Below, piece by piece: positions 6,643-44,127 of a stretch of DNA of 64,000 nucleotides (its first letter is position 1; each line of letters starts with the position of its first letter). The notes under the pieces were generated by a model. It ran no database searches. It worked only from the letters and a program-made list of their open reading frames with translations, and was not told the origin of the DNA. The DNA comes from Candidatus Krumholzibacteriota bacterium (GTDB taxonomy: Bacteria; Krumholzibacteriota; Krumholzibacteriia; JAJRXK01): the NCBI GenBank assembly GCA_029262065.1, contig JAJDAC010000041.1, forward strand, positions 62,001 to 126,000. Direction: 5' to 3'. The position numbers and the translations under genes were made by a program.

Positions 6643-6660
6643 ACAAAAGTATGGCATCCT
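6643..6660 (+). promoter_or_regulatory. Candidate lexA promoter with degenerate SOS-type element
   Basis: ACAAAAGTATG at 6643-6653 aligns with ACATTTGTATG found before imuB and dnaE2, and is followed at the same spacing by an extended -10-like TGGCATCCT (6652-6660). The first half-site is weaker than at the other two loci. That is plausible for an autoregulated repressor gene but could be chance. Confidence 0.35.
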
Positions 6661-22941: not shown

Positions 22942-23051
22942 CTGAACCTCGACGTCGTTGGATCTCCATGGAAATGAAGCTGTTGCATGGGAGTGTACGG
23001 CACATTGTCCGCGACCGGAACCCGCCCCCCCCAAAACGGCACTCGTTTATA

Positions 23052-23070
23052 TACATTTGTATGTTATATT
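23052..23070 (+). promoter_or_regulatory. SOS-type operator/extended -10 of imuB
   Basis: The 19 bp TACATTTGTATGTTATATT is identical to the element before dnaE2 at 40957. It joins the inverted repeat TACA-TT-TGTA (here ATACA-TT-TGTAT) to an extended -10, TG-T-TATATT, so a bound repressor would cover the -10. The transcript would have a leader of about 70 nt. LexA as the binder is inference from the genes controlled. Confidence 0.7.
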
Positions 23071-23147
23071 CCACACCTCCCGGATACGACACCAAGTGAA
23101 CCACCTCGAAAGGCCTGCATCAGGGCCGCCCCGGGAGACCCCACACC

Positions 23148-24632
23148 GTGGAACGCATGGCCTGCGTGGTGCTGCCAGAATACCCTCTGCAGCTCCTGCT
23201 CAAACGAAATCCCCAATGGCTCGAACACCCCGTGGCGGTGGTCGATCGTGATAAAGCCCAGGGCAAACTGCTGTGGGTGAACGAACGTGCCCGTGCCCTC
23301 CGGATTCTTCCGGGCCTTCGGTACAGCGAAGGCTTATCGCTGAGCCACGAACTGCGTGCCGGCGTGGTCACCGAGGAAGACCTGCAAACCCAGACCGAGC
23401 GACTTCTGCGACGCCTTCGCTTCTACTCGGCCGACGTCGAGCCGTCCCAAGAACCAGGAGTGTTTTGGCTGAGCGCGCGGGGGTTATCGTTGCTGTTTCC
23501 CTCGCTACAGAAGTGGACCGAGCTCATCCACTCCGACGTATGCGACATGGGATACCAGTTGTCAGTGGTCGCCGGCTTCTCGCGCTTCGGAAGCTACGCC
23601 ACGGCCAAGTCGCAGATCACCGGCACCATGTGCTTTCGCGAAGAATTCGAAGAAGAAATCTTCGCCAAGGCCATTCGTATCGAGCGACTGGGGTTCAAGC
23701 CCGAGCTACGCGACGCGCTGGCGCAACTGGGCGTGTTCAACCTGGGCCAGTTTCTCGAGCTTCCCTCCAACGGAGTACGCAAACGTTTCGGCGCCGAGGT
23801 CCACAACTTGTACCAGTTGGCCAAAGGCGAGCTATGGGCCCCCGTACAAGGAACAACTCCTGTTGAGCCCGCGCGCACCGCATTGCATCTGGATCATCCC
23901 GAAATGCAGGTACATCGCCTACTGGTCATTCTGGAAGAATTGCTGCGCAACCTGATGGGCATTCTCAACGCGCGCAACGAGACCCTGCAAGCACTCCACC
24001 TGAACCTGCAACTGGACGACGGTCGTGAAACCACCGAGGTCCTACGCCCGGCCGAACCTACATTCGACATGAAGCAACTGCTGGAGCTTCTACGACTGCG
24101 GCTGGAAAACATCGCGCTCAGTGCCGGCGTGGTGCACCTGGAACTTCATATCGAAGGCATACTCGCCACACGCGAGCAGCTACAACTTTTCCAGACCGCG
24201 CCCAATCGCGACCTGAAAGCCGCTTCGCGCGCGCTCGCACGCATTCGGGCCGAGTTGGGCGATGAAGCCGTAGCTCACGCAGTGTTGAAAGAAGGCCACC
24301 TTCCCGAGGCACGATTCACATGGGAGCCGGTAACCAAACTCGAAACCCCGAAGCCTCGCAATGTGCAAACCGGAAACCTGATTCGCCGTGTGTTCCAGCG
24401 ACCCATTGCCCTGTCGATTCAACCACGCAACGAGCCCGACGGTTGGATGATCACCGGGCTGGAAGACGGCCCGGTGGAAGAGATCGTGGGGCCGTACATC
24501 GTTACCGGTGGTTGGTGGCGACGCGATGTGTTTCGCGAGTATCACTTCGTGCGCGCACGGCGCAACGGTTGGCTATGGGTATACTTCGATCGCCTTCGGA
24601 GGCGGTGGTACTGGCAAGGATGTGTAGAGTAA
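23148..24632 (+). CDS. imuB: ImuB, catalytically inactive Y-family polymerase homologue
   Basis: About 494 aa. It begins like ImuB (ERMACVVLPEYPLQLLLKR) and lacks the N-terminal DMDAFF acidic motif of active Y-family polymerases. The second acidic motif is also gone: the region reads FYSADVEPSQEPGVFWLSARG, where an active enzyme would have SIDE. The finger/palm pattern (GYQLSVVAGFSRFGSYATAKS), HhH-like region (LAQLGVFNLGQFLELP) and little-finger region are kept, and the C-terminus ends FDRLRRRWYWQGCVE, typical of ImuB. In the family it is a scaffold linking ImuA and DnaE2 to the sliding clamp. GTG 23148 or ATG 23157 may be the start. Confidence 0.88.
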   Translation: MERMACVVLPEYPLQLLLKRNPQWLEHPVAVVDRDKAQGKLLWVNERARALRILPGLRYSEGLSLSHELRAGVVTEEDLQTQTERLLRRLRFYSADVEPSQEPGVFWLSARGLSLLFPSLQKWTELIHSDVCDMGYQLSVVAGFSRFGSYATAKSQITGTMCFREEFEEEIFAKAIRIERLGFKPELRDALAQLGVFNLGQFLELPSNGVRKRFGAEVHNLYQLAKGELWAPVQGTTPVEPARTALHLDHPEMQVHRLLVILEELLRNLMGILNARNETLQALHLNLQLDDGRETTEVLRPAEPTFDMKQLLELLRLRLENIALSAGVVHLELHIEGILATREQLQLFQTAPNRDLKAASRALARIRAELGDEAVAHAVLKEGHLPEARFTWEPVTKLETPKPRNVQTGNLIRRVFQRPIALSIQPRNEPDGWMITGLEDGPVEEIVGPYIVTGGWWRRDVFREYHFVRARRNGWLWVYFDRLRRRWYWQGCVE

Positions 24633-24635
24633 TCG

Positions 24636-27600
24636 CTACCAGGGAGCTCGCTCGCTTCCCACGGTAACGAAGGCCGCCCAATAGAACGGGTGGGCATATT
24701 CTTCGGAATCCAGGAGTTTTGCCCGGGCTCGCCGCAGCGACTCCGCCGCCGGCCGGTCCTTTTCGAACATCTCCTTATATAGGTTCTCCATGAGCGCGGC
24801 CGTGGACTCGTCGGATACCGGCCACAGGCTGGCCACCACACCACGGGCACCCGCGCCAAGGAACGCGCGGGTGAGCCCCACGACTCCTTCGCCCTTCTGC
24901 AACCGGCCGCGTGCGCTCTCGCAGGCCGAGAGAACCACCAGGCTCTGACTCAGTGGCAACGAGAAGATCTCCAGGGAGTAGAGATAGCCGTCCTCACCCG
25001 AATCGGTTTCGGTGCCCAGGGCAATGCTGGACCGGCTCGGCTCGGCCGCGTCGATCAGTCCGTGTGCGGCCAGGTGCAGCACGCGCGGAGCCCGCTCGCG
25101 TAGCTCGCGTTTCAGTGCCGATTCCGTGGCCTCGGCTCCCACCAGAAGACGGCTCCGCTTCTTTCCCACCGATTCGCCGATGGCCTCCACTTCGTTTCGA
25201 GAATACGGAAGCGCGCTCAGTCCCCGTGCCTCGTCGTAGAGAGGATCTCCGGCCGCCAGCAACTCGAGCTCTGGCTTTTCCCCATCCGCCCGTTCACGCA
25301 ACCCCAACCACACAGTGGCCGATGGCGCGTAGACCAGTGGCACATCTCGCCCCAGGAACGGTAGCGAACCCCAAGGAGCACTTGCTTCGGAGTCGGCAGA
25401 AAGAAGTACCTCGAACGGCAAGTCGAAGAGAACGCCATCGGGCACGATCACAACCGCATCGGCGGCGTGAACCCGAGCATTGGCCGGTTGCAACAAGCGG
25501 TCATAGAGACTTCGTGCCTGCGAACGAAGTACGGCGTCGGCACCGCCCCGTGCTGCAATGGCCGCCCGGAGCTTTTCGATCCCAACCTCCAACTCGGCCC
25601 GCGGCGGAAGCTCCACCATCTCCACCGACTCTCGATCGACAACCCACATGTAGGACGCGCTGTCGCCCAGCGCGTATTCCAGAAGCAGCACGCCGCGCGG
25701 CAGACCGGCGGCAACCGCTTCCAACGACAGCGGTGAAGCCGCCGGGACCGAAGCGCCAAGGGTCTCTCTGGTGTGGCGTTCCCGTAGAGATGCCATCTGT
25801 TCTTCGATCCTGAAACGCGCACCTCGTCCCTCCGGGCCCGGCGGCGCCGTATACAAAGAGTCGAGCAGTGCTTCCATGCCCGGAACCTCGCCGGCGGGAA
25901 GCGCGCTCTGCACCAGATCCAGCAACCCTCGCGCCTTCAACCGTTCGGCCACTGAGAATGCACGAGACGTCCATACTTCGCCCGCGTCCTCGTTTGACTT
26001 GCCAACGTAGTAAGCCAGAACTCCCTCGTAGGCCTTGCCGCGATCGCCTCGCACGAACCCCGTACCCACGGCCGCGTCGCTCACGCGATTCGCCTCGAGA
26101 GCATCGAGCGCTCGGTCGTAGTAGTAGGCCGCGCTGTCGGGCACATCCTGCTCGAAACTGTGGGCCAGACCCAGCAGAGGCAGCCAGTCAATCGCGTACT
26201 GGCCCGACGACTCAAGTTGCACCATGGCTCGTCGGTACCGCTCGCGAGCCTGCACGTTTTCCCCCGCAATCGCTTCCACGTTGGCCAGGCCGATCTCGCT
26301 GAGCGGAATGGTCGCTTCCGCGCCATCGGCTTGATCCTGCGCCAACGCCTCGGTCCAGTGCCCACGCGATTTCTCGACATCACCCAGCTCCAGGGCGGCG
26401 TCTCCGGCCAGGGCATTCGCATCGCGATAACGACGCGGCGCTCCCTGGGCCGCGGCCAGCTCGATCGCCTGCTCGGCGGAGGAGAGAGCACGATCGTTGG
26501 CCGAAACCGAGCGATACAACTCGCCCAGATTGATCAACGCCTCGGTTTGCAGATCGGGCAGCCCCCGCTCCTGCGCCAACTTCAAGGCCGCCACCAGATC
26601 TTCCCGCGCGCGATCGAAGTCGCCGACATTGTGAAAAGTCAGTCCACGAACCCTATGTAGAATGACCGCCATGGTGGGTTCTTCGACCCGCTCCGCCAAG
26701 GCTTCGGCCAGCTCCAACTCGCCGAGCGCTTCCTGGTATCTTCCTTCCAGACGGAGGTTGTCGGCGTAGTTGACCCGACCAATCAATTCATCATCGGCGG
26801 CGTCGATCTGCTGCGCGATGTCGATAACCCTGGCGTAGGAACTCGCGGCTTCGTCGTAACGCCCCATGCTGCTGTGCAGATTCCCGATGCTGGTGTACAG
26901 CTCGGAAAGCCGTTTCATTTCGCCCTGCGCTTCCAGGATGGGAAGCGCCTCTTCGAAGTGCTTGCGCGCGGGTACGAGCTGACCCAGCACGTAGTACACG
27001 TTCCCCAGGTACGTCAGCGTCGTCCCCAGTCCACCCATGTCACCGATGGCGCGGCGCATTTCCTTGGCCTGACCGTAGAAATCGCCGGCCGTCTCGTATT
27101 CTCCGAGTTGCATGGCGACCGAACCCAGGCCGTTGAGGGTCCGACCCTGGAGCAAACGATCTTCCACCGCGCGCCGAGCGACGATGGCTTTTTCGTAGGC
27201 GGCCCTTACGGCCTGCATGTCTCCGCGGGCCCATTCGAAAACCCCAAGCGTTCCCCAAGCGACGGCCTCATCGTGACTGGCGCCGATCTGGGCGTAGATC
27301 TCCAGTGCCTGCTTCAGGTGCTCTGCGCCAAGCGCCGGATCACCGGCCGCGCGGGCCTCGCTGGCCTGGGCCTCCAGGCCCTTGGCTCGGCGAAACTCGG
27401 CCCAGTCGGCGTCGCTGCGGTTTTGGTAGGCCAAGACCAGTGTGGCGGGAACCGAGGAGCCCGATGCCGTGGCGTGATGGCTGGCGACGGTTTCGGCGAA
27501 GTCCACGTTCTCCTGAGCGGCGCCCGCATCTCCGTCAGCCTGGAGGGCGATGGCCACGTCGATCATCTGGGCCACGGCCGCACCCACCAACAGCGGGTTC

Positions 27601-27764
27601 TCGGCCACGAATTCGTGGAGTGCGGAGTCGCCACCAGTCTGGAAGGCGGCGTCGGCCTCCACGATGAAACCAGTCACCGGATCGGCCGTCGCGGGCGAGA
27701 AAAAGCCCGAAAAGGCCAACAAAACCAGCGAAAAGGCAAAAACCAACCGTCGAAAATGGTGCAT
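24636..27764 (-). CDS. Exported TPR-CHAT caspase-like protease
   Basis: A 1042-aa protein with a signal peptide (MHHFRRLVFAFSLVLLAFSG, ending ...PATA). About 15 TPR units cover ~60-600, for example AVAWGTLGVFEWARGDMQAV. The C-terminal CHAT domain at ~700-1040 has the dyad His901 (LHLAAHGLID) and Cys948 (VVLSACESARG), followed by the usual GLTRAFLGAGARGVVASLW. CHAT proteases are clan CD cysteine peptidases. Many with TPRs are regulated by protein partners. Export is notable, since the best-known TPR-CHAT protease, Craspase, is cytosolic. Start 27764 has AGGAAG upstream. It ends 3 bp from imuB, convergently. Confidence 0.92.
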   Translation of the reverse strand: MHHFRRLVFAFSLVLLAFSGFFSPATADPVTGFIVEADAAFQTGGDSALHEFVAENPLLVGAAVAQMIDVAIALQADGDAGAAQENVDFAETVASHHATASGSSVPATLVLAYQNRSDADWAEFRRAKGLEAQASEARAAGDPALGAEHLKQALEIYAQIGASHDEAVAWGTLGVFEWARGDMQAVRAAYEKAIVARRAVEDRLLQGRTLNGLGSVAMQLGEYETAGDFYGQAKEMRRAIGDMGGLGTTLTYLGNVYYVLGQLVPARKHFEEALPILEAQGEMKRLSELYTSIGNLHSSMGRYDEAASSYARVIDIAQQIDAADDELIGRVNYADNLRLEGRYQEALGELELAEALAERVEEPTMAVILHRVRGLTFHNVGDFDRAREDLVAALKLAQERGLPDLQTEALINLGELYRSVSANDRALSSAEQAIELAAAQGAPRRYRDANALAGDAALELGDVEKSRGHWTEALAQDQADGAEATIPLSEIGLANVEAIAGENVQARERYRRAMVQLESSGQYAIDWLPLLGLAHSFEQDVPDSAAYYYDRALDALEANRVSDAAVGTGFVRGDRGKAYEGVLAYYVGKSNEDAGEVWTSRAFSVAERLKARGLLDLVQSALPAGEVPGMEALLDSLYTAPPGPEGRGARFRIEEQMASLRERHTRETLGASVPAASPLSLEAVAAGLPRGVLLLEYALGDSASYMWVVDRESVEMVELPPRAELEVGIEKLRAAIAARGGADAVLRSQARSLYDRLLQPANARVHAADAVVIVPDGVLFDLPFEVLLSADSEASAPWGSLPFLGRDVPLVYAPSATVWLGLRERADGEKPELELLAAGDPLYDEARGLSALPYSRNEVEAIGESVGKKRSRLLVGAEATESALKRELRERAPRVLHLAAHGLIDAAEPSRSSIALGTETDSGEDGYLYSLEIFSLPLSQSLVVLSACESARGRLQKGEGVVGLTRAFLGAGARGVVASLWPVSDESTAALMENLYKEMFEKDRPAAESLRRARAKLLDSEEYAHPFYWAAFVTVGSERAPW

Positions 27765-27835
27765 ACTGTCGCTTCCTGATGAATTCCCTCGAACCTGGGC
27801 AGCGTACACCCTTCACGCCGCTCAGCCCACCGGTC

Positions 27836-27844
27836 TGGTACTAT
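27836..27844 (+). promoter_or_regulatory. Extended -10 promoter for the 27.9 kb operon
   Basis: TGGTACTAT (TGn-TACTAT) is about 75 bp before the ATG at 27920, in the divergent gap with the CHAT gene. It resembles the extended -10 seen before imuB and dnaE2. No clear -35. Confidence 0.35.
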
Positions 27845-27919
27845 TGAACGGCTCGCCTGACTCCCCAGGCTGGGCCCGCGTTGTGTCTCCCTCGACCCCC
27901 AAACTTCCCGGAGCTCCCC

Positions 27920-28486
27920 ATGCGTCTTGCTGATCTGCGCCGATTTTTCGTCCTATCCCTGCTCGTGGTGCTGGGCTCAGAACCCGCCTCCGCGACCCTG
28001 GTTCTGCAGCGAACCACGCAGCAACTCGGATCCGACTCCGATGTGGTCGTACAGGGGACGGTCGAAGCCGTTCAGCCATTCTGGAACGCCGAGGGAACCC
28101 GCATCCTGACCGCGATCGACATTCGGGTTGAGACCGCCCACAAAGGGGCGCCGGCGCAGACAATTCGGGTCGTCCAGATGGGCGGCACCCTCGATGGCAT
28201 GCGCATGACGGTGGCCGGAGCCCTGCAGTGGACGCCGGGCGAAGAGATCCTGGTCTTTCTGGAATCCAGCCAAGACAGCTACCGGGTAGCGGGGTTCACC
28301 CAAGGCAAGTTCTCGCTCGAGCGCGATCCCGCCACGCGTGAACTCTACGCGACGCGCGAGCTCCCCGAGGGCGCCAAACTGCTCGATCGACCGGGTGGAC
28401 GCGCCGTGTCTGATGGCCGCGCCGTCAGAACGTCCATCAAGGAACTGCTGGCCGAAGCCCTGCCCCAGCTGAACGGAGGGGAGTGA
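27920..28486 (+). CDS. Small secreted protein paired with the giant matrixin
   Basis: A 188-aa protein with a signal peptide (MRLADLRRFFVLSLLVVLGS). The body has an OB-like run of beta strands: DSDVVVQGTVEAVQPFWN, then TAIDIRVETAHKGA, then GALQWTPGEEILVFLE. I recall uncharacterised secreted proteins with this VVxGxVExV..W..EG..I.T layout next to matrixin metalloproteases; no function is known. It ends 3 bp before the 28490 gene, so the two are an operon. It could be a chaperone, inhibitor or adaptor of the protease, which is inference from the arrangement only. Confidence 0.75.
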   Translation: MRLADLRRFFVLSLLVVLGSEPASATLVLQRTTQQLGSDSDVVVQGTVEAVQPFWNAEGTRILTAIDIRVETAHKGAPAQTIRVVQMGGTLDGMRMTVAGALQWTPGEEILVFLESSQDSYRVAGFTQGKFSLERDPATRELYATRELPEGAKLLDRPGGRAVSDGRAVRTSIKELLAEALPQLNGGE

Positions 28487-28489
28487 GCC

Positions 28490-31400
28490 ATGAAGCAATT
28501 CACGACTACAAGCACCGCTCTTCTTATCCTTCTTCTGCTGGCCGTACCCACGTTTGCTCAGATCGTCGACACCGATGGCGACGGAGTTGAAGATGGCACC
28601 GACCTGTGTCCCAACGAAGACGCAAGTGGCTTCGACGCAAATGGCGACGGCTGCCTCGATGATCCGCGCGGAGCCCGGCACATCGAGTTCTGGGCCACCA
28701 CTGATTTGCCTCTCAACTACGTCGTACACGAGGACGGGGCCCCCAACGTTACCGACGGCAGCGATTTCGCGGCCATCGACGCCGCCTTCCAAGCCTGGAC
28801 GTCACTGCCCGACGCTTTCATGTCGGCCACCAATACCGGCACGACACCGCAAGCACAGGCCAGCGGCATCGACGGCATCCACCAGGTAACGTTCTCGGAC
28901 ATGAGTTTCAACTTCGGCAGCGCAGTGCTCGCGGTGGGCTTGACCACCTCGTTCACGGAACCCGCGAACTTTCTGGGACGCGACGTACTCCCGGGGCAGA
29001 TCGTGGATGCCGACATGATGTTCAACCCCACCAAGCAATTCCGAACTTCGAGCTGGGGTCTGCCCAACGCTGCCGATATCCAGGCCACGGCTACGCACGA
29101 GGCGGGACATCTGTTCGGCCTGGCTCACTCGGCCGTCGTGACTTCCACCATGTTCTACGTTCTGCCTCCCGGCGAGAACGCACGTACGCTCGAATCCGAC
29201 GACGAACTGGCGCTGTTCAAGGCCTACCCCGAACCCGGTCCACTGGGTTCGGCTACGCGACTCGACGGCGCGGTGGTGGACGGCGGCGGGTTCCCGGTTC
29301 CTGGCGCAGCTGTATTCCTCATAAGTACGGCCACCGGTGACACCACGGCGTGTGACTACACGCTGCCCACCGGAGCCTACACATTCGTCGGTGCTGCACC
29401 GGGTAACTACACGGTCGCCATCCATCCGTTGGACGGGTCCTCTGGCATCCGCTTCCTGGTGCCCGGGTTCATCAATCAACTGGTGCAGGATACCGCGGTG
29501 CAGAACTTCGTACCGGAGTCCTGGAGCCTCGACGAAACCACGAGCGACGACCCAACCGTAGCCGACCCGATCAACCTGGCGACGGGCGTACCCGTAACCG
29601 GTATCGACATCATCACCAACGTCGACCTCCTCCCGCCGCTGGTTCAGGACCAACGTCCACTACCCGGTTCCACCGGCGTGGGAATCGACGCGGCCGTACT
29701 CATCTCGTTCGACGAACCCATCGACGATGCGACAATTCAGGGGAATTTCTCACTGACGGATCCGTCGGGGGGATTCGTGTCCGGGTTGGCTTCAATTTTC
29801 AGGGACGACCGGGTGATCTCCTTCACCCCGAATCGGCCTCTCGACTTCGGAACCGACTACACCCTCACGCTGGGCAGCGGTCTGAGCGACCGCTTCGGCA
29901 ATCCGCTGGGCAGCGATCAGGAGGCTACGTTCTCCACCGAGCCCCGCCCCGCGGTGTCGATCAACAGTCTTACCCCCAATCGCGGCGTGGCCGGAACCAG
30001 CGTCGTGATCAACGGCGAGGGATTCGATGTAGATACGGCAAACACCACGGTGCTCTTCGACGGCATCCCCGCCACGATCACCTCGGCGTCTTCCATCCGA
30101 CTCATCGCCACGGTTCCCTCGTCGATCGATGTTGGCAGTTACCAGGTCAGTGTCACGGTAGCGGGTACGACGAACGAGACCAGCAACGATCTCTTGTTCA
30201 GTGTCCTCACGTTGCAGGAGATTGCGCGCGGAACCGACGTGGGCGTGGCCAACCTGGCCGGGGCGCCTCGTGCGCTCACGACGAAACAAGATGGTTCGCT
30301 TGCCTACGTCGGCACCAGCGTCGGCGTATCGACCGTTGTCGTCGACCCCGCTCAGCCCAGCTACCTGACTTCAGATCCCATTTCGCAACTCAGTGACCCT
30401 ATTGCGGCCATCGACATCACGCCGGACGGCCGCCGGGTCTACGCTCTCAGTCGAGCCCAGCAGCGCCTGCATTGGATCGATGCGGACGCAACCTCAGCGA
30501 ACTTCAACGAGGTGCTCGCAACGATCGATTTGAGCGAGGAACCGCTGGGTATCGCGATTGAACCCGCCGGCAAGCGTGCGTTCGTGCCCATGGCCGATGG
30601 AAGCGTCCAGATCTGGGATGTGAAGTTCGACGACGGCACCTACGGCAACACGTTCAACCGCCAGATCGGACAGATCGACAACGTGGCCGGCGGCGCGGTG
30701 GGATCGGTGGCCTTCGATCCCAGCAACGAGCTACTCCTGCTTCCAACCGGCGCCGGGACTCTCGCCATCTACGCAATGGAAACCCTCGAAGTGTTGGCCG
30801 AAGTAAACGTGGGAGTAGACCCGCGGCGGGTCAAAGTCGACCCCGCCGGAAAACTGGCCTACGTCACCGATGGCAATGGCATTGTATCGGTAGTGTCGCT
30901 GGGCGATCTCGCCGAGGCGGCCGCGAATGGGACCGCCCCGGCCGTCCCTGCTTTCAAGGTGCAGGACATCGAATTGGGCGGCACGGCCCGGGGTCTTGCA
31001 ATCACCCCAGCCGCCCTGTTCGCCTACGTTGCCAATCGCGAGTTCGATCAGGTTGAGGTCATTGACCTCGATTCCTCGAGCTCCACCTTCCGCACATCGG
31101 CGGCCGAGATCCCCACCGGATCGAATCCCGTCGCAACGTCGCTTTCCCTGGATGCGAACTATCTGTTCACTTTGGTCGAGGGCGCCAACCAACTGCAGGT
31201 GACAGCCATCGGCTTCGGCCCGGTACTACGCAGTGTGTACCCCCGACTCGTACAACCAGGTGACTACGTTGCCATCTCCGGTTCTGGCTTCACAGACCCC
31301 GAGTGTGCGACCACCGTGTGCCCACCCGGAACCGGCGAGCGCATCTGGTTTGGTGACATCGAAGCCACGAACTTTGAGATCATCCCCACCGGCGATGCTT

Positions 31401-34400: not shown

Positions 34401-35803
34401 TGAACGGCGTGTCGGCCATGGATGAAGCCACGACACCGCCGGCGCAGGTCGCCGTGAACCTGGTGAAGACCGTCAACTTCGGCCCGGATCCCAGCGCCAT
34501 GGCGTTCGATCCCACCGGCGGCGGTCTGGCCATCGTGGCCACCGCGGGTGATCTACAGCTCAAGTTGATCAACACCAGCAGCGTGTCCCTGACAACGGTC
34601 GCGGCGACCATTCGGGTCACGCCCCGCACCCTCAACCTGAACTCCAACGGACGCTACGTCACTGGTTCGATCGAGCTGCCGCCGAATATCTTCCCGAAGG
34701 ACATCGTCAAGTCGACCGTGATCTTGTACAGCGATAATCCGCTCGTGGGAATTCTGGCCGACCCGGACAAAGGGGAAATCACGGACGAGAACGGAAACGG
34801 CATCGATGAGCTGATCGTGAAGTTCGACCGGGCTGCTTTCCAGGAGATCATTCCCGAGGGAGACAGCGTACTGGTGGTCATCGAGGGCCTACTCGAAGAC
34901 GGACGCACCTTCCGTGGCGAAGACTTCATTCGCACGAAGCGCCCATCGGTGACCTTCCCCACCGGAGGCGAGGTGTTGGAATCGGGTGCGACGGTCGATG
35001 TGACCTGGACCTCACCCAGCGACGTAGATGCGGACTTCGTTGACGTGTACTACTCCACGGACGGCGGCGATAACTGGTTCCCGATTGCCGACAAGGTCCC
35101 GGACACCGGAGCCACCCCCTGGAACTTGCCGTTCATAGAGACTGAGGATGCTCGGGTTCTCGTGGTCTTGTTCGAGAACAACAGCGAGGCCGGCGGAGGC
35201 ATCAGCCCAGCTCCGTTTTCTATCACGGGAATGCCCGTGGCCGTGTCTTTGCAAGACGTGCAGCTGGATGTTCAGCAGGGCAACGCCGTCCTTCGCTGGA
35301 ACGTCTACGCCGCCGCTGCACGCCCGGGCTTCCATGTGCTGCGCAGTGAACGTGAGGACGGAAACTTCGAGCGCATCACCCACCAAACGGTGACCGAAGG
35401 CGAACTCGGATTCGAGTTCGAAGACGAAGCCATTCGAGGCAACCGTACCTACTACTACCTGCTTGAAGAATCCTGGGGTGGCAACGCCGGGACCAAGCAC
35501 GGACCGTTCATGCTCAAGAACCTGGTAAGCAACTCACTCGAGCAGAACTATCCGAACGCGTTCAACCCCATTACCAACATCCGGTTTTCGGTCGCCCAGC
35601 GCGGCCCCGTGAAGTTGGTTCTCTACAATGTCGCCGGACAAAGGGTGAAGACGTTGATCAACAAGGTGCTCGAAGCCGACACCTACCAGGTGGAGTGGAA
35701 CGGGCGCGATGAGAACGGCAAGGATGTCTCCAGCGGCATCTATCTGTACCGCATGGAGACCTCGGGATTCGTGGCGTCGCGGAAGATGACCCTGGTGCGC
35801 TAG
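28490..35803 (+). CDS. Giant secreted matrixin-like metalloprotease with propellers, Ig/IPT domains and FlgD-like C-terminus
   Basis: A 2437-aa protein. Signal peptide 1-23, then a thrombospondin type 3-like Ca-binding segment at ~25-55 (DTDGDGVEDGTDLCPNED). The metalloprotease domain is at ~60-255 with zinc site HEAGHLFGLAH (H203, H207, H213) and a Met-turn TSTMFYV. After it come a carboxypeptidase-regulatory-like domain (~265-330), a Big_5-like domain (~380-480), an IPT/TIG domain (~485-575), a YVTN/lactonase-type propeller (~575-905), a second IPT, a second propeller, a Big_1-like domain (~1395), another Big_5 and IPT, a third propeller with repeats, a FnIII-like segment, and a FlgD/type-9-sorting-like end (NYPNAFNPITNIRFSV ... 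SSGIYLYRMETSGF). Likely surface-attached or secreted. Confidence 0.9.
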   Translation: MKQFTTTSTALLILLLLAVPTFAQIVDTDGDGVEDGTDLCPNEDASGFDANGDGCLDDPRGARHIEFWATTDLPLNYVVHEDGAPNVTDGSDFAAIDAAFQAWTSLPDAFMSATNTGTTPQAQASGIDGIHQVTFSDMSFNFGSAVLAVGLTTSFTEPANFLGRDVLPGQIVDADMMFNPTKQFRTSSWGLPNAADIQATATHEAGHLFGLAHSAVVTSTMFYVLPPGENARTLESDDELALFKAYPEPGPLGSATRLDGAVVDGGGFPVPGAAVFLISTATGDTTACDYTLPTGAYTFVGAAPGNYTVAIHPLDGSSGIRFLVPGFINQLVQDTAVQNFVPESWSLDETTSDDPTVADPINLATGVPVTGIDIITNVDLLPPLVQDQRPLPGSTGVGIDAAVLISFDEPIDDATIQGNFSLTDPSGGFVSGLASIFRDDRVISFTPNRPLDFGTDYTLTLGSGLSDRFGNPLGSDQEATFSTEPRPAVSINSLTPNRGVAGTSVVINGEGFDVDTANTTVLFDGIPATITSASSIRLIATVPSSIDVGSYQVSVTVAGTTNETSNDLLFSVLTLQEIARGTDVGVANLAGAPRALTTKQDGSLAYVGTSVGVSTVVVDPAQPSYLTSDPISQLSDPIAAIDITPDGRRVYALSRAQQRLHWIDADATSANFNEVLATIDLSEEPLGIAIEPAGKRAFVPMADGSVQIWDVKFDDGTYGNTFNRQIGQIDNVAGGAVGSVAFDPSNELLLLPTGAGTLAIYAMETLEVLAEVNVGVDPRRVKVDPAGKLAYVTDGNGIVSVVSLGDLAEAAANGTAPAVPAFKVQDIELGGTARGLAITPAALFAYVANREFDQVEVIDLDSSSSTFRTSAAEIPTGSNPVATSLSLDANYLFTLVEGANQLQVTAIGFGPVLRSVYPRLVQPGDYVAISGSGFTDPECATTVCPPGTGERIWFGDIEATNFEIIPTGDAFLNVRVPAGFTGGPVRVQVLGGGPPTAPDPYSNAIFLRALEPGDPFDPEIGEGLSSSISMDSSNGYDFDDAEEQGLTNVAEVSPNGEIVVLGGFGTIWILDGRTTSNTYNQELAELPMSVDERVEDVAFSADGSRLYVSLRTFQIEPGDGAAVVDIVDVNPNSPSFATVLGQIDMSLIDNCFGPARIYTHPAGDYLFIEDSCNDALVVADIQPGSLTENEIVIRPTFFGTNRGGDFHPGGDHLYTVVDTEVKITNTNPLSAGWSETNDFFPATTFWNMTPHTVAFTPDGARAMVLLSQDNPPGGANSENYYVATLDTSDPRNPVELYPPQFVLAGETLTAPAGEIIVSPQGHRMIVQVARFGVSLWDITAATYVSIASVGSEGSTDTAAGLAFTPDGERAYFTERQSSTVGYNRAQLLNFVSANSTDITVLSGDAQVGVAGQPLPAPVRIQITDVNQFPRPGVALQVSIIGGGSLPNGSDRQILSTNNNGIAEINWTLGPNPDVPGQTTPGNRMFLNLGSTGQLPVAFYADSIENPALLPLNFVQVLPADEATNVSATTSVQAIFSRPVDPATANLTAFFVHPEAGVDPVPAIVGLADNARRVSLTPITPLAFDTAYDVEITGGLQDTDANALTNPTTTSFVTSFPPALRLSSVSPPSATVGIELILGGRGFNADPALNTVFFNNVAVTAVDAGPDFLRVRVPANATTGLIRVEANSQVSSTLGFTVLVPNTSPLDEVVASLGSGSSTKGVSLSPDGTRAYTLSPEANLVIPIDMETFTSGDGIPVGNNPVSIDIHPDGTLAYVANFGSNDISVIDVDPTSGTFEEVVARIPTGNSPIDLAVSPQGDDVFVAHAAETFFNIIDGNSSSSTFNQVVASVGSGTTSKAVAIDPDGTRVFFGTNVGYFIVEQPGFETVVASVASGSSTKALKITPDGTLLIVLDTTGSVDIYDVNQTSSAFNSVVASLGSGSSTKGVSLSPDGTLLYLFQEDSDDILVFSLEILNGVSAMDEATTPPAQVAVNLVKTVNFGPDPSAMAFDPTGGGLAIVATAGDLQLKLINTSSVSLTTVAATIRVTPRTLNLNSNGRYVTGSIELPPNIFPKDIVKSTVILYSDNPLVGILADPDKGEITDENGNGIDELIVKFDRAAFQEIIPEGDSVLVVIEGLLEDGRTFRGEDFIRTKRPSVTFPTGGEVLESGATVDVTWTSPSDVDADFVDVYYSTDGGDNWFPIADKVPDTGATPWNLPFIETEDARVLVVLFENNSEAGGGISPAPFSITGMPVAVSLQDVQLDVQQGNAVLRWNVYAAAARPGFHVLRSEREDGNFERITHQTVTEGELGFEFEDEAIRGNRTYYYLLEESWGGNAGTKHGPFMLKNLVSNSLEQNYPNAFNPITNIRFSVAQRGPVKLVLYNVAGQRVKTLINKVLEADTYQVEWNGRDENGKDVSSGIYLYRMETSGFVASRKMTLVR
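33611..34342 (+). repeat. Four VVASxGSGSSTKxxxxxPDGT repeats inside the giant protease
   Basis: Copies begin at 33611, 34019, 34142 and 34280, each 21 codons. Copies 1 and 4 encode nearly the same peptide with many synonymous differences, so the protein rather than the DNA is under selection. They mark blades of the third propeller; unequal spacing (408, 123, 138 bp) shows insertions between blades. Confidence 0.75.
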
Positions 35804-35828
35804 AAACGCCGACGTCAGCAAGAACGTG

Positions 35829-35861
35829 AGCCCCTCCGCCACCTGTGCGGAGGGGCTTTTT
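35829..35861 (+). terminator. Rho-independent terminator after the giant protease
   Basis: An 11-bp GC-rich stem, AGCCCCTCCGC / GCGGAGGGGCT, 7-nt loop, followed by TTTTT. It sits 26 bp after the stop codon. Confidence 0.9.
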
Positions 35862-36031
35862 CGTTCCCTGATCACTTCCTGTTGCTGACCGGCTCTTCCT
35901 GCTGTTGACCGACCCTGGCGCGTACAGGGCGAAGCTGTCACCAGCCGCCATTGCAGTGGCCATCGCCCCTGGCATTGGAGTACTGTCCGTTGCTCAACTG
36001 ACAGCGACGATAGACGTTTCCCGGAGGCATC

Positions 36032-37291
36032 ATGACAACCACCCTTGTTTTGGTCGTTGGCGTAACGCTCGTCGTCTCGGCTCTATGCTCGCTGCTCGAG
36101 GCCACTCTCTATTCCACACGGGTCGCCATCCTAGAAGCCGCAAGAGCCGACGGACGTCACATCGTGGCGGCGGGACACATGCTGGATCTGAAGCGGAATG
36201 TTTCAAAGCCAACCTCGGCCATCCTGATCCTGAATACGATTGCCAACACGGCGGGGGCGACGGTGGCGGGTATGCTTGCTGCGCAAGTTTGGGGCGGCGG
36301 CGTGGTGCCGCTCTTCTCGGCCGGACTTACCGCCGCAATCCTGTTCCTATCCGAGATTCTCCCGAAGACGTTCGGCGCCCTTCATTGGCGCGGCATCTGG
36401 CCATTCGTCGCCCTGCCGCTGAAGGGGTTGGTCACGGCAATGCGACCGTTGATCTGGGTGACCGAGCACTTTTCTTCGTTGATCGTGTCACGAGGTCGTA
36501 CCGCGCCGGTGACGACCGAAGCAGAGATCGTGGCCATGATTCGGATGGGGGCAGGTGCTGGACAGCTGACCCGGACCGAGACGGAGCTACTCACCTCGGT
36601 ATTTCATTTCGACGAACTTGTATGCAGCGATGTCATGATTCCGTGGACCAACGTCGTGCGCATCGAGGCAACGTGGACGCGCGAGCGTTGCGTGGACGTC
36701 ATTCGTGAGTCGGGTCACAGCCGCTATCCAGTTTGCGATGCCGGTGGTGGTGTGCTGGGCATCCTCAACGTTACGGATTTTGCGACCTCAGCGCCCGACG
36801 CCGGTATTGATTCTCTGCTCCGCCCAGCGATCAAGGTTCCGGAGTCGCTTTCTCTTCCGGCGTTGCTGCTCAACATGCAAGCGGAACCAGTGCGAGTCGC
36901 CATCGTCATCGACGAGTACGGCAACACGACCGGCCTTCTGACAGTGGTGGATCTCATCGAGGAGATCGTGGGGGTTCTCAGTGACGAGGTGAAACCGCGT
37001 GAGTCTGAAATCCACCGGGAGGCCGCGAATGTCTACCTCGTGTCGGGTGTGGTGCCCATCTCGCGCGTGCAGCGCGAAATTGGCATCGAGCTGCCGGAGC
37101 GACCCAACGCTCGGACGATGTCGGGGTGGCTGGCGGCACACCTCGGCCGCCTTCCCCGCGTTGGGGACGAGGTCAAGGTCGTAGGTGGCACCGTGAGGGT
37201 CGAGCGCGTAGTGAACCACCGTGCCGACCGAGTACGTGTCGTCGTTGACGACGTCCCCGATTCGTCGGAGGGGTCCGGGATGCCCGCATGA
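36032..37291 (+). CDS. CNNM/CorC-family (HlyC/CorC) membrane transporter
   Basis: A 419-aa protein. The N-terminal CNNM (DUF21) membrane domain spans ~1-145 and contains four hydrophobic stretches and the SEILPKTFG motif at ~107-115. It is followed by a CBS-pair at ~195-310 (VMIPWTNVV, SRYPVCD, IDEYGNTTGLLTVVDLIEEIVG), and a CorC_HlyC transporter-associated domain at ~325-410. Members move or regulate Mg/Co or other divalent cations across the inner membrane. The start has GGAGG about 7 bases upstream. It lies alone between two secreted-protein genes with its own upstream gap of 228 bp. Confidence 0.93.
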   Translation: MTTTLVLVVGVTLVVSALCSLLEATLYSTRVAILEAARADGRHIVAAGHMLDLKRNVSKPTSAILILNTIANTAGATVAGMLAAQVWGGGVVPLFSAGLTAAILFLSEILPKTFGALHWRGIWPFVALPLKGLVTAMRPLIWVTEHFSSLIVSRGRTAPVTTEAEIVAMIRMGAGAGQLTRTETELLTSVFHFDELVCSDVMIPWTNVVRIEATWTRERCVDVIRESGHSRYPVCDAGGGVLGILNVTDFATSAPDAGIDSLLRPAIKVPESLSLPALLLNMQAEPVRVAIVIDEYGNTTGLLTVVDLIEEIVGVLSDEVKPRESEIHREAANVYLVSGVVPISRVQREIGIELPERPNARTMSGWLAAHLGRLPRVGDEVKVVGGTVRVERVVNHRADRVRVVVDDVPDSSEGSGMPA

Positions 37292-37434
37292 CGGGGGCTT
37301 GAGCGGTGGAGTTGGCCTGGCGCGCGGGGCTTTTTCTTGACCAAGGCGTCATTCGAGTGCATTGATTTCACTCCCTCATGCACCTGTTAAGGACTCTGAA
37401 CCCCACACGCACTCCAAGATACAGGACGACACCC

Positions 37435-40400
37435 ATGCGCAACCGTATGCGGCTTTGGCCCTTATTGCTCCCCCTTCTCGGGCTGTTCTTCCTCCAACAA
37501 CGGGCTCAGGTGCCCGAAATACTCGAGATCCCCATCAACGGTCAGTGGACAGCGGCCGATCGTGCCATGTGGAAGAAGTTCAAGATGGCCAAGCAGGGGC
37601 GCCCGATCGACGCCAAGATCCCTCCGAAGGGTCACCCCGAGAAGTTCGCAGAAATCCTGCACCAGATGAAGACTCCCGCCGACCGGGATGCGCCCGAGTA
37701 CCAACCAGGTTACCGGCAACGCGAACTTTCCAAGGCCATGCGCGGCGCAAAACGGGGTCCCGCCCTGCCGTGGATCTCGCGTGGGCCGGGCAACGTTGCA
37801 GGTCGGGCGCGAGCCCTGGTAGTGGACCCCGACGACGCAACCAACAGCACCTGGTACATCGGTACCGCGGGCGGAGGAATGTGGAAAACCACGGATGCCG
37901 GTGCTACGTGGTCGAACTCATCGGTGGGCCTTGCATCGATGTCCGTGGGCGCACTGGTGATGGCCCCATCGAATCACGACGTCATGTACGCAGGCACCGG
38001 CGAGGGGTTCTTCAACATTGGCGCCGTCAACGGTCAGGGCATGTTCAAGTCGACCGACCGAGGCGCCACCTGGACACTGCTACCGGGCACCAATGTCGCC
38101 GCCTGGGAAAACGTCACGCGTATCGTCGTCGATCCCAACGACGAGAACATCGTCTTGGCAAGTACCGTCACCGGATTCTGGAAGGGAGATATCAACGATA
38201 TCTCCAATATCTGGCGTTCGATCGATGGTGGGGCCACCTGGGTTTCGGTGCATTCGACCATGTTCTCCGTGGAGCAGATCATCGCAACGCCAGGCAACTT
38301 CAATATTCTGTACGCCACTGCGAACGCCGACGGAATCCTGAAATCTACCGACGCTGGAGTTTCGTGGAGCAACGTGCTCTCGACGCCTGGACTATTGCGC
38401 TCGGAACTGGCCATCTCACCTGTGGATTCCGATCGCCTGTACGCGTCGGTATGGGCCTCGGTTCCACGGTTCTTCTACTCTACCGACGCGGGCGCAAACT
38501 GGACCGAAACCACCAACACCACGATTGGCGAGGACACCCACTTTCTGGGCGGACAAGGCTGGCTCGACAACGCAATCGTTTGTCACCCGACCGACGTGAA
38601 CACCGTGTACGTTGGCGGTCAGCGCCTGTACAGGCTGGTCATCAGTGGGGCGAACGTCACGGCCACGCAACTGGCCGTCGGACCCGTGCACGTGGACTAT
38701 CACGGGCTCACCGTCCTTGACGACGGTGGCGGCAACTGGCGAATTCTCGCGGTGAACGACGGGGGCGTGGGTATCTCCGGAAACGAAGACACCAACTGGA
38801 CCGACCCGAAAGACGGCATGCTGACCACGCAATTCTACGGCGCAGACAAGCGCCCCGGGCGTAGCCAATACGTCGGCGGAATGCAGGACAACGGCAGTTG
38901 GATTTCAGCAGAGAATCCGGGGCAACTAGACAATTGGTCAGAGGCTTTCGGCGGTGACGGCTTCGAAGCATCGTGGCATTTCTTTGACAGCAACAAGATC
39001 ATGGTGTCTGCCCAATTCAACAACATGCAGCGAACGTTGGACGGTGGCCTCACCTGGAACAGTGTTGGACCTGGCAACGGGCCGTTTATCAGCCGCCTGG
39101 GCAAAACCAACCAGTTTCCGCAGATCCTGCTGGCCGTGTCCGAGTCTGGTGTGTACCGCACCACGAACTTTGGCGACACCTGGACGCTGATCAACGTTCC
39201 GATTCGGTGGGGCACGGGCGCTTTTCGGGACGTACGTATGTCCAGCGCCGACGGTAATATCTGCTGGGCCGGGGCTGGCATAGAGTTCAACACCCGGGTC
39301 CAGGTTTCGACGGATCGTGGCGTGACCTGGAACCAGACCAGCAACTATACGACGGCGACCCTGGGCACACTGTCGGGGATTTCGACCCACCCCACCGATC
39401 CCAACACCGCCTACGCCTGTTTCTCGTTCGGTCAGCGACCAAAGATACTGCGCACCACCGATCTGGGCGTTACCTGGACCGACATTACCGGCTTCGAAAC
39501 CAGCACGGTGAGCACGAACGGGTTCCCCGACGTAGCCACCTACGACGTCATGGTGTTTCCAAACGACACCAACAAGATCTGGGCGGGTACAGAAATCGGT
39601 CTGGTCGAGTCACTCGACGGTGGTGCCACGTGGGCCATGGCCAACAACGGGTTTCCGCAACCAGCTTCCATCTGGCAGGTCCGTCAGATAGAGGACGAAG
39701 TTGTCGTGGCCACGCACGGGTCCGGCATTTGGAGCGTAACCATTCCCGGGATGTCTGCCGGATCTCAATACCGACCCCTGCTGGATAGTGCAGCGCAGGG
39801 CCCCAGTGGTGTGGTCCTCGACCTCAACCTCCGGTCGGCCTACGACTCCACCGATATCCGCGTGAACGGTGCCACGGTGCAAACGCTGGGTCTCAACGCC
39901 GCTTTCGACAAGCCGGCCGTGGTCCTGCCCGTGATTGCCGATGACAACTGGGATGTGCGCGCGCACTCCTTTATTGGCGGCACCGAGTTCGTTTCGATCA
40001 TCCGCAACCTCGACGTGTTCGCGCTGCAGGTCGCCCAACCGGAGTTCTCCACCGACTTCGAGCCCGACACCGGCGACCTGACTCAGATCGACGGCTTCTC
40101 GGTGGGCCCGAACGTCAGCTTCGTGGGCAACAGCCTGAACACCGCCCACCGCTACGCCGACTCGAGCCAGCCGATCTCTTACGTTCGTGTCCCGATCACG
40201 GTGGCTCACTCCAATGCCACCCTGGAATTCGACGAGGTAGTGCTCGTGGAGCCCGGGGACCCAGGGAGTGAATTCGGTGGCGCCAGCTTTTGGGACTATG
40301 TAATCGTCGAGGGCTCTACCGACGGCATCCAATGGAAGCCATTGCTCGACGGGTACGACTCAAACGACGACCCCGCCTGGCTCGCCGAGTGGAATTCTCT

Positions 40401-40881
40401 CGTCGTAGGATCGAATTCATTCGGCACCGGCGAAGAATCGCTCTACCGCCATCGGGTTATCAACATGCTCGACACGTTCAACCCCGGTGAAACCATTCTC
40501 GTGCGCTTTCGGATGTTCGCGGACGGCTTCGTAAACGGCTGGGGCTGGGCCATCGACAACATCGAGATCCAGACAGGCGTGACGGGCACGGACTCCCCCA
40601 CGGGACTGGTATCGATGCAACAAAACTTCCCGAATCCATTCAATCCCAGTACGGTCATTCGCTACACCGTTGCCACCCCGGGACTTGTCTTGCTCAAGGT
40701 GTACGACCTACGCGGTCGGGAAGTGCGAACGCTGGTCAACGGCGTTCAGGACTCCGGACCACAGTCGATCGAATGGAGCGGAAAGGACAACGCCGGGCGC
40801 GGCGTGGCCAGCGGCACCTACATCTATCGTCTGGTGGCAAGGGAGCAGACCATTCAGAAGAAGATGACGCTGCTGAAATAA
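37435..40881 (+). CDS. Secreted Asp-box (VPS10/sortilin-like) protein with jelly-roll and FlgD-like C-terminus
   Basis: A 1148-aa protein with a signal peptide (MRNRMRLWPLLLPLLGLFFL). At least ten Asp-box turns of the S/T-x-D-x-G-x-T-W kind occur, such as KTTDAGATW, KSTDRGATW, RSIDGGATW, RTLDGGLTW and ESLDGGATW, forming one or two large propellers over ~100-770. A later region (~900-1050; VPITVAHSNATLEFDE, WDYVIVEGSTDGIQW, WGWAIDNIEI) resembles the MAM/jelly-roll region of immune-inhibitor-A-like secreted proteases, but no protease domain is present. The last ~90 residues are a FlgD/type-9-sorting-like domain (NFPNPFNPSTVIRYTV ... ASGTYIYRLVA). ATG 37435 was chosen at the signal peptide with AGGAC upstream. 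A terminator follows. Confidence 0.88.
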   Translation: MRNRMRLWPLLLPLLGLFFLQQRAQVPEILEIPINGQWTAADRAMWKKFKMAKQGRPIDAKIPPKGHPEKFAEILHQMKTPADRDAPEYQPGYRQRELSKAMRGAKRGPALPWISRGPGNVAGRARALVVDPDDATNSTWYIGTAGGGMWKTTDAGATWSNSSVGLASMSVGALVMAPSNHDVMYAGTGEGFFNIGAVNGQGMFKSTDRGATWTLLPGTNVAAWENVTRIVVDPNDENIVLASTVTGFWKGDINDISNIWRSIDGGATWVSVHSTMFSVEQIIATPGNFNILYATANADGILKSTDAGVSWSNVLSTPGLLRSELAISPVDSDRLYASVWASVPRFFYSTDAGANWTETTNTTIGEDTHFLGGQGWLDNAIVCHPTDVNTVYVGGQRLYRLVISGANVTATQLAVGPVHVDYHGLTVLDDGGGNWRILAVNDGGVGISGNEDTNWTDPKDGMLTTQFYGADKRPGRSQYVGGMQDNGSWISAENPGQLDNWSEAFGGDGFEASWHFFDSNKIMVSAQFNNMQRTLDGGLTWNSVGPGNGPFISRLGKTNQFPQILLAVSESGVYRTTNFGDTWTLINVPIRWGTGAFRDVRMSSADGNICWAGAGIEFNTRVQVSTDRGVTWNQTSNYTTATLGTLSGISTHPTDPNTAYACFSFGQRPKILRTTDLGVTWTDITGFETSTVSTNGFPDVATYDVMVFPNDTNKIWAGTEIGLVESLDGGATWAMANNGFPQPASIWQVRQIEDEVVVATHGSGIWSVTIPGMSAGSQYRPLLDSAAQGPSGVVLDLNLRSAYDSTDIRVNGATVQTLGLNAAFDKPAVVLPVIADDNWDVRAHSFIGGTEFVSIIRNLDVFALQVAQPEFSTDFEPDTGDLTQIDGFSVGPNVSFVGNSLNTAHRYADSSQPISYVRVPITVAHSNATLEFDEVVLVEPGDPGSEFGGASFWDYVIVEGSTDGIQWKPLLDGYDSNDDPAWLAEWNSLVVGSNSFGTGEESLYRHRVINMLDTFNPGETILVRFRMFADGFVNGWGWAIDNIEIQTGVTGTDSPTGLVSMQQNFPNPFNPSTVIRYTVATPGLVLLKVYDLRGREVRTLVNGVQDSGPQSIEWSGKDNAGRGVASGTYIYRLVAREQTIQKKMTLLK

Positions 40882-40904
40882 GCGCGACGAGATTCAGAGA
40901 GAGA

Positions 40905-40937
40905 AACGCCCCCAAAGGCCCTTTTGGGGGCGTTTTT
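40905..40937 (+). terminator. Rho-independent terminator between the Asp-box gene and dnaE2
   Basis: A 12-bp stem, AACGCCCCCAAA / TTTGGGGGCGTT, ending in TTTTT, 23 bp after the stop. It isolates the dnaE2 promoter, which starts 20 bp later. Confidence 0.92.
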
Positions 40938-40956
40938 GTGCGCCCTTCCAATTCAG

Positions 40957-40975
40957 TACATTTGTATGTTATATT
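40957..40975 (+). promoter_or_regulatory. SOS-type operator/extended -10 of dnaE2
   Basis: Identical over 19 bp to the element before imuB (23052). Here the inverted repeat is TACA-TT-TGTA, preceded by AG, and the -10 is TATATT at 40970-40975, 36 bp before the ATG. The half-sites TAC...GTA resemble, from memory, the cyanobacterial LexA box. The two loci are 18 kb apart and the flanks are unrelated, which argues for selection. Confidence 0.7.
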
Positions 40976-44000: not shown

Positions 44001-44127
44001 TTCGTTCCTGGGGGTCAGCGGGAAGATCCAGACCGAGCAGGGAGTGACCCACCTGGTGGTGGATAGCATGTGGGTGCCGGAACTGAGTGTGAAGCCGAAG
44101 CGGTTGAAGAGTCGGGACTTCCACTGA
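41011..44127 (+). CDS. dnaE2: DnaE2 error-prone DNA polymerase III alpha
   Basis: A 1038-aa polymerase, shorter than replicative DnaE and close to other DnaE2 proteins. The PHP domain is N-terminal (CKSNYSFLEGASHPEELV); its metal-site histidines are replaced (LWCKS, TDRDG), so PHP exonuclease activity is unlikely. Polymerase acidic residues are in PDIDLDIS and FKVDLLGLGMLT. A HhH region and a C-terminal OB fold (RVRYAGLVINRQRPKTAGG) follow. With ImuA and ImuB it makes damage-induced mutations in other bacteria. ATG 41011 lies 36 bp after the -10, so the in-frame TTG at 40924 is excluded. No clear Shine-Dalgarno precedes the ATG. Confidence 0.94.
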   Translation: MNATSYTPLWCKSNYSFLEGASHPEELVEEALRLGLRSLALTDRDGVYGIVRAHMAARSTDLHLIVGSEVTLEDQSTITLLATDRPGYANLCRLLTKGRLRCEKGRSEVTWREVCEHAEGLIALWGGHASLLVANADPLFIARDLREAFDDRIYAMLTRHREPEEIHRERRLRERAKRYGFPTVASTEVLYHTRGRRSLQDVLTCIRHGVTLNTVGQLTKPNDQHALMSAVRLGMLYEDDLAAVRRTDLIAQRCTFSLQQIRYRYPNERLPAGTSVEQHLRQLAFEGAKLRYPPEHFHNGTPRDVVLQLEKELKLIQELEYDGYFLTMWEIVQFCRKNGILCQGRGSAANSAVCYCLGITAIDPVRMGLLFERFLSRERAEPPDIDLDISHERREEVIQHVYSKYGRQYAAMAANFIRYRARSAVREVGKVLELPEVEIDRLANLLSNSDAIDTDLLRTAGFDIDSPVHQHLMRLTMEIQDFPRHLSIHPGGFLLGHEPVSTLVPIENATMEDRTVIQWDKEDLENLGLFKVDLLGLGMLTVIDKSFQLQKKHLNEHFDLATIPHQDEPTFEMIRAADTIGVFQIESRAQMAMLPRLKPRTYYDLVIEISIVRPGPISGGMVHPYLRRRNGEEPVTYPHKCLEPVLRKTLGVPLFQEQVMQLAMAAADYTPGEADQLRRDMAAWRQTGKLERHRDRLITRMVQKGITPEFAERVFNQIRGFGEYGFPESHAASFALLGYASAWLKCHYPAVFACALLNSQPMGFYSPATIVDDVKRHGVECRPICVQRSQWDCTMEPCETSGEGLAMRMGFRYVKGLRADQGQRIETTRGTRPFTSLEEFAQRTRFEDATLARLAVAGAFEGIDPERRSALWKAKGMRVPRQPVLDLQMTERKPKFDSLDQFNTIAWDYNSSHHSVRGHPLLAMRSELQAHRLPCATQINELPHGRRVRYAGLVINRQRPKTAGGVVFMTLEDETGLVNLVIWKDVFRKYKILAKTSSFLGVSGKIQTEQGVTHLVVDSMWVPELSVKPKRLKSRDFH

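What the first reader, a model, noticed from the sequence alone, without database searches (positions are those of the whole stretch)
23052..40975. Identical 19-bp operator/promoter before imuB and dnaE2; the mutasome is split over three loci
TACATTTGTATGTTATATT occurs at 23052-23070 and 40957-40975, 18 kb apart, with unrelated flanks, upstream of exactly the two genes that should be co-induced. It combines an inverted repeat (TACA-TT-TGTA) with an extended -10, so repression by occlusion is built in. A degenerate form, ACAAAAGTATG followed by TGGCATCCT at the same spacing, precedes lexA (6643-6660). In most bacteria imuA, imuB and dnaE2 are one cassette; here they are dispersed but apparently held together by the operator.
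Basis: partly seen in the sequence, partly recalled or inferred. Interest (0 to 1): 0.75.

Follow-up and report, generated by a model that had tools for sequence, protein, structure and literature searches.

The report
Dedicated LexA switch for split mutasome
In this bacterium the genes for an error-prone DNA-copying machine have drifted apart on the chromosome, and the separated genes carry the same on/off DNA switch, apparently worked by a repressor of their own that sits beside the first gene and is distinct from the cell's general DNA-damage repressor.

Summary
The sites are best read as operators of the window's own LexA. That LexA is not the general SOS repressor: it is a second LexA (LexA2) encoded beside imuA. 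recA and a dinB-lexA1 operon elsewhere carry a different box (AAAC-N4-GTTT), so the expected recA/uvrA/ruvC regulon is not there. In 38 relatives LexA2 occurs in 13 of 14 genomes with imuA and imuB and 0 of 24 others. Of 75 LexA2 loci (15 phylum labels), 66 carry an A[G/T]AC-N4-GT[C/A]T-like box; a -10 typically starts 2 bp after it. Cassette genes over 1 kb from the preceding one have their own box in 6 of 7 cases, against 2 of 167 close junctions. LexA2 residue 40 (Ala or Ser/Thr) goes with operator base 2 (G or T), though tree-independent support is thin; the window has Ser and T. Split LexA-controlled cassettes and cassette-specific LexA2 proteins are known; this operator, its breadth and the pairing I did not find in print. 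Nothing was tested experimentally.

The parts
6641..6652 (+). LexA2 operator ACACAAAAGTAT before lexA2 (one half-site imperfect)
6655..6660 (+). weak -10 CATCCT (3 of 6), 2 bp after the operator
6715..7347 (+). lexA2: LexA DNA-binding and S24 domains; Ala90-Gly91, Ser123, Lys160 present; recognition-helix Ser40
7359..8003 (+). imuA-like RecA-fold protein, 11 bp after lexA2
23051..23062 (+). LexA2 operator ATACATTTGTAT before imuB (palindromic outside the central TT)
23065..23070 (+). -10 TATATT (5 of 6), with TG one base upstream (extended -10); no good -35
23148..24632 (+). imuB (Y-family polymerase homologue without the usual catalytic residues; QLQLF at 344-348 resembles a clamp-binding motif, recalled)
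40907..40937 (+). terminator-like hairpin and T-run between the upstream gene and dnaE2
   Evidence: read from sequence by eye
40956..40967 (+). LexA2 operator GTACATTTGTAT before dnaE2
40970..40975 (+). -10 TATATT (5 of 6), extended -10; no good -35
41011..44127 (+). dnaE2 (imuC), error-prone DNA polymerase

Best explanation
The repeated 19-mer is the operator and core promoter of a mutasome-only SOS regulon. LexA2, encoded at 6715-7347 with imuA, binds A[G/T]AC-N4-GT[C/A]T. At imuB and dnaE2 the 12-bp operator ends 2 bp before the -10 and overlaps the TG of an extended -10, so bound LexA2 would block RNA polymerase. On DNA damage RecA filaments would trigger LexA2 self-cleavage (its Ala-Gly site and Ser/Lys pair are present) and release lexA2-imuA, imuB and dnaE2 together. 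The split genes descend from a lexA2-imuA-imuB-dnaE2 operon; genes that end up far from the shared promoter mostly have an operator of their own. Shown by sequence: sites, geometry, co-occurrence, operators at split points. Inferred: binding, cleavage, co-induction, descent.
For: (a) Operator at lexA2 itself: 66 of 75 LexA2 loci have a 7- or 8-of-8 match to A[G/T]AC-N4-GT[C/A]T within 260 bp upstream. (b) A[G/T]ACAWWTGT[A/C]T occurs 55 times in 1,222,713 bp of 80 named loci, 52 within about 400 bp upstream of lexA2, imuA, imuB or dnaE2. (c) Of 180 junctions between neighbouring cassette genes, a full box precedes the second gene in 6 of 7 with gaps over 1 kb, 1 of 6 at 501-1000 bp, 2 of 167 up to 500 bp; Fisher 5e-9 for first against last. 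(d) In 38 relatives AGACAWWTGTCT has 17 sites, 13 of them before lexA2, imuB or dnaE2, in 9 LexA2 genomes; the number is little above the backwards control (13), the placing is what counts. (e) LexA2 (50% identity or more in its best segment, others 41% or less) in 13 of 14 genomes with imuA and imuB, 0 of 24 others. (f) In 59 boxes the hexamer 2 bp downstream matches TATAAT at 3.6 of 6 on average, 1.2-1.9 at six other offsets. (g) Residue 40, aligned with E. coli Ser39, a DNA-contact residue (PMC3091678, one passage), goes with operator base 2: Ala with G in both half-sites 44, mixed 7, T in both 0; Ser/Thr 1, 5 and 9. The window has Ser and T in both half-sites at imuB and dnaE2.
Against: No binding or expression data. 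9 of 75 LexA2 loci lack a box by the rule used, some with near-boxes. Detached dnaE2 of G018 and G029 has no LexA2 box and carries a LexA1-type repeat instead; L296 dnaE2 (gap 1393 bp) has no box. The residue-base pairing has only 3 well-supported independent tree pairs, which agree in 2.3 to 2.9 of 3 on average, too few for significance (median p 0.25-0.5). One clear exception to the pairing: L229 (Ser with AGAC..GTCT). The lexA2 operator of the window is imperfect and its -10 poor.
Confidence: 0.88

Rival explanations
1. The sites belong to the general SOS repressor LexA1 (C49), and LexA2 is redundant.
For: LexA1-type and LexA2 boxes share AC-N4-GT and differ at one base per half-site. In G003, which lacks LexA2, the imuA-imuB-dnaE2 operon carries AAACATTTGTTT, a LexA1-type box. 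In family f5 detached dnaE2 carries the LexA1-type direct repeat.
Against: In the window genome recA, the dinB-X-lexA1 operon and one C22 promoter have A at base 2, while imuB and dnaE2 have T. A[G/T]AC operators go with LexA2 in the class and beyond. The 27 LexA1-type rows lie on one side of a branch (support 100). The LexA1 box itself rests on few promoters.
Confidence: 0.07
2. The 19-mer is a recently copied promoter or repeat unrelated to LexA.
For: 19 identical bases 18 kb apart.
Against: Identity stops at the edges of operator and -10, and the same kind of operator precedes imuB or dnaE2 in other genomes such as G015, G025 and L235. A copied promoter would still be a LexA2 promoter.
Confidence: 0.03
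3. Chance similarity.
For: C45:41422 (ATACAATTGTATG before an unrelated gene) suggests that isolated boxes occur by chance.
Against: 0 of 100 shuffles gave two matches; cross-genome evidence as above.
Confidence: 0.02

Closest known systems
Pseudomonas putida lexA2-imuA-imuB-imuC(dnaE2) operon with two LexA regulons
   Same: A second lexA heads the cassette and controls it, and another LexA has a different regulon (PMC3901139 and PMC5261740, passages read).
   Different: One operon there, three transcription units here. Its LexA2 box, recalled as GTAC-N4-GTGC, shares the AC-N4-GT core but not the outer bases; that paper was not held.
Mycobacterial mutasome (imuA'-imuB and dnaE2 at separate loci, both LexA-controlled)
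   Same: Split cassette with LexA control at each piece (PMC3901139, passages).
   Different: There, as I recall, the general LexA does it; here a separate LexA2 is encoded with imuA.
Cassette-only SOS regulons
   Different: Here a second, general-type LexA with its own box coexists.

Membership tests
LexA repressor | LexA DNA-binding domain plus S24 peptidase, above curated cut-offs | tested here: met
   Pfam PF01726 34.6 (cut-off 23.7), PF00717 98.7 (23.3); TIGR00498 145.4 (110.95)
LexA repressor | Ala-Gly cleavage site and Ser/Lys catalytic pair | tested here: met
   A90-G91, S123, K160 invariant in 13 of 13 aligned LexA2
LexA repressor | RecA-stimulated self-cleavage; binding to its own promoter | not testable with these tools
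   operator-like site before lexA2 found; no experiment
ImuA-ImuB-DnaE2 mutasome | DnaE2-type C-family polymerase | tested here: met
   PRK05672 1341 bits, cut-off 939
ImuA-ImuB-DnaE2 mutasome | ImuB: Y-family homologue without catalytic residues | tested here: met
   11 of 11 aligned members match IMS at E up to 0.01, the window one below the curated cut-off (16.4 of 23.2); the DMDAF of the genome's DinB is absent from the N-terminus (by eye)
ImuA-ImuB-DnaE2 mutasome | ImuA RecA-like protein | tested here: met
   RecA Pfam 27.3 (cut-off 27); NCBIfam ImuA model only 25.9 of 150, so not met by that model; 46-56% identity to imuA of G002, G008, G011, G027
lexA2-imuABC cassette (P. putida type) | lexA2 next to imuA, with another LexA elsewhere | tested here: met
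lexA2-imuABC cassette (P. putida type) | all four genes in one operon | tested here: not met
   15 kb and 16 kb separate the pieces; contiguous in G002, G008, G011, G027
lexA2-imuABC cassette (P. putida type) | LexA2 protein of the same lineage as P. putida LexA2 | not tested
   P. putida LexA2 was not retrieved

The most novel reading that the evidence does not exclude
A single LexA lineage has travelled with the mutasome cassette through many phyla as a self-contained SOS circuit. It kept one operator architecture (A[G/T]AC-N4-GT[C/A]T, -10 two bp downstream) whatever box the host's own LexA uses. One recognition-helix residue (40, Ala or Ser/Thr) sets the second operator base, and operators appear at break points when the operon splits. 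Where LexA2 is lost, or a piece moves out, the host LexA1 can take over.
Probability: 0.5. Interest if true: 0.7.

Novelty: new variant of a known kind. Interest (0 to 1): 0.55.

Why it matters
It would separate control of induced mutagenesis from the general SOS response in one cell, with two LexA boxes that differ by a base per half-site. That makes insulation between paralogous repressors, and how operons are rewired after they split, directly testable: a predicted one-residue, one-base code, and related genomes with intact, split and apparently captured cassettes. It also sits oddly with the view (PMC8565304, passages) that the LexA motif is stable within broad phylogenetic groups, since one operator here goes with the cassette across groups.

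Tried and rejected
Rejected: the general SOS motif idea; AYACAWWWGTATG finds no recA site, and recA has a different box. Rejected: a real third site at C45:41422. The 4 AGACAWWTGTCT sites outside the cassette (G009, G032 twice, G019:C309) lie in or before unrelated frames.

Rows dropped: 12 of 87 LexA rows (L281, L282, L285, L293, L297-L304) were left out of the LexA2 counts because they look like LexA1 or are of unclear type; none had a box. G022 dnaE2 was left out of the split test because its upstream sequence reads N. One search printed residue 'I' for L310 and L312, which read as Ala by eye. For the tree tests the window was scored by its imuB box, not its mixed lexA2 box, and L241 by a box 620 bp upstream.

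Led nowhere: papers by identifier for the Verrucomicrobia LexA motif, the two P. putida regulons and cassette dispersal are not held. The frame after the C22 LexA1-type box and the middle gene of the dinB-X-lexA1 operon match no Pfam family. A literature search for LexA with Krumholzibacter found 0 papers. 'Not found in print' means in those searches of an open-licence library only, mostly from listings.
Full report
Observation. The operator core is 12 bp: ATACATTTGTAT at 23051-23062 and GTACATTTGTAT at 40956-40967, with ACACAAAAGTAT at 6641-6652 before lexA. In all three the next base is G and a -10-like hexamer starts 2 bp after the box: TATATT, TATATT and CATCCT. The gene before imuB reads the other way, and dnaE2 is preceded by a terminator-like hairpin, so both probably need promoters of their own (by eye).

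Genes. lexA passes the curated LexA models; the next gene is RecA-like and matches imuA of relatives; dnaE2 is secure; ImuB rests on relatives and synteny more than on its own Pfam score. Order and strand over 37 kb are lexA-imuA ... imuB ... dnaE2, as in the contiguous cassettes of G002, G008, G011 and G027.

Which LexA. The genome holds three LexA-type proteins. The window one falls with the rows that I call LexA2; the 27 LexA1-type rows form one side of a branch with support 100, and 4 rows of unclear type mix with LexA2. C49 encodes dinB, an unknown 459-aa protein and LexA1; before dinB stand two boxes, CAAACATGCGTTT and CAAACATCCGTTT. recA has AAACAAATGTTT just upstream of a plausible -35/-10, by eye. 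CAAACNNNNGTTT has 15 forward and 16 reverse sites in the genome against 7 and 5 for the reversed control, so a single hit means little. C14 encodes a LexA-like protein with Gly for the catalytic Ser and Arg for Lys.

Regulon limits. ATACNNNNGTAT has 23 sites in the genome against 4 for the control. Of the 14 examined, only the imuB site is followed by TATATT; 11 of the other 13 lie in frames of 280 residues or more, L217 and L218 do not. Three more seen (C34, C45, C56) have no TATATT either; 6 of 23 were not looked at. AGACAWWTGTCT is absent from this genome.

Relatives. Of 38 genomes of the class, 14 have clear imuA and imuB, and 13 of these 14 have LexA2; none of the other 24 do. 13 of the 14 also have a DnaE2 of about 60% identity or more; in G019 (86% complete) none was found. 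The one without LexA2, G003, has an imuA-imuB-dnaE2 operon with AAACATTTGTTT before it, like the AAACATCTGTTT before its dinB, with lexA1 1.5 kb further on: it seems to have passed to LexA1. In one search, 20 of 80 phylum genomes reach E 1e-40; G015, G022 and G027 fall short there because an insert splits their LexA2 match.

Operators follow the breaks. In the class, 8 detached imuB or dnaE2 genes could be read: G000 (2), G015 (2), G022 imuB and G025 dnaE2 carry a LexA2 box, 6 of 8. G018 and G029 dnaE2 do not, and carry CGAA-N7-CGAA, a direct repeat found before lexA1 in 4 of 4 and recA in 3 of 6 genomes of that family examined, and before lexA2 in 4 of 5 and in 5 of 10 more; background 0.075 per 250 bp in held loci of that family, which include these very sites. 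In contiguous cassettes no exact box lies before imuB or dnaE2, though G027 has a one-mismatch site inside imuA. In named loci a full box precedes the gene at 6 of 7 junctions over 1 kb, 1 of 6 of 501-1000 bp and 2 of 167 up to 500 bp; L238 there is evidently the same genome as G015. The one long junction without a box is L296.

Breadth. The LexA2 rows carry 15 phylum labels, read from record titles (19 of 75 rows have none), among them Pseudomonadota (Thiocapsa, Thiocystis), Acidobacteriota, Planctomycetota, Myxococcota and Krumholzibacteriota, and the labels mix on the tree. Mixing suggests transfer but does not prove it: many branches are weak and most rows are metagenome bins.

Operator code. 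Operators come in two forms. Ala40 LexA2 goes with G at base 2 of both half-sites (44, nearly all AGAC..GTCT; 7 mixed, 0 with T in both); Ser or Thr goes with T (9 in both, 5 mixed including the window's own lexA2 box, 1 with G in both). Fisher p is 2e-9 for the unmixed sites, but it ignores relatedness. On trees built with and without the helix columns there are 3 well-supported independent pairs, agreeing in 2.3 to 2.9 of 3 on average, and p cannot reach 0.05. Ten more lexA2 loci of the phylum are all Ala with AGAC or GGAC, but all are of one family. Second boxes agree: those of Ala genomes (G015, G022, G025, L260, L262, L263, L275, L276, L283, L286) have G, those of the window and of Thiocystis (L235), both Ser, have T in both half-sites.

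What is known. [quoted passage not shown] putida LexA1 and LexA2. PMC3323433 (passages) describes cassette-only LexA regulons. PMC8565304 (outline and passages) reviews LexA motif change after duplication. So the kind is known. The operator, its breadth, and the residue-base pairing I did not find in the searches made, which cover an open-licence library only.

Noticed in passing
own genome C14:213695-214282 (L158): A third LexA-like protein lacks the catalytic Ser (GDGM) and Lys (SVRR) and has SNG at the cleavage site: probably a LexA that cannot cut itself.
   Followed up: partly
own genome C49:244-3619 (L157): dinB, an unknown 459-aa gene without a Pfam match, and lexA1 in a row, with tandem LexA1-type boxes in front.
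   Followed up: partly
family f5 genomes, e.g. L039, L036, L055: Direct repeat TTCG-N7-TTCG stands before lexA1, some recA genes and also upstream of several lexA2, which suggests double control there.
   Followed up: partly
family f3 genomes, e.g. G026 C1:3088335-3093228, G023 C33:11070-15708: Another possible cassette: LexA1-type lexA, a distant ImuB-like gene and a DnaE homologue side by side.
   Followed up: no
own genome C22:53932 (L164): AAACATGTGTTTGTTATATT, a LexA1-type box with the same -10 as imuB, before a reading frame with no Pfam match.
   Followed up: partly
window 24636-27809, - strand: TPR-CHAT protein convergent with imuB.
   Followed up: no
G015, G022, G027 LexA2 (L142, L043, L042): Insert before the catalytic part of LexA2, about 25-50 residues by eye.
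   Followed up: no
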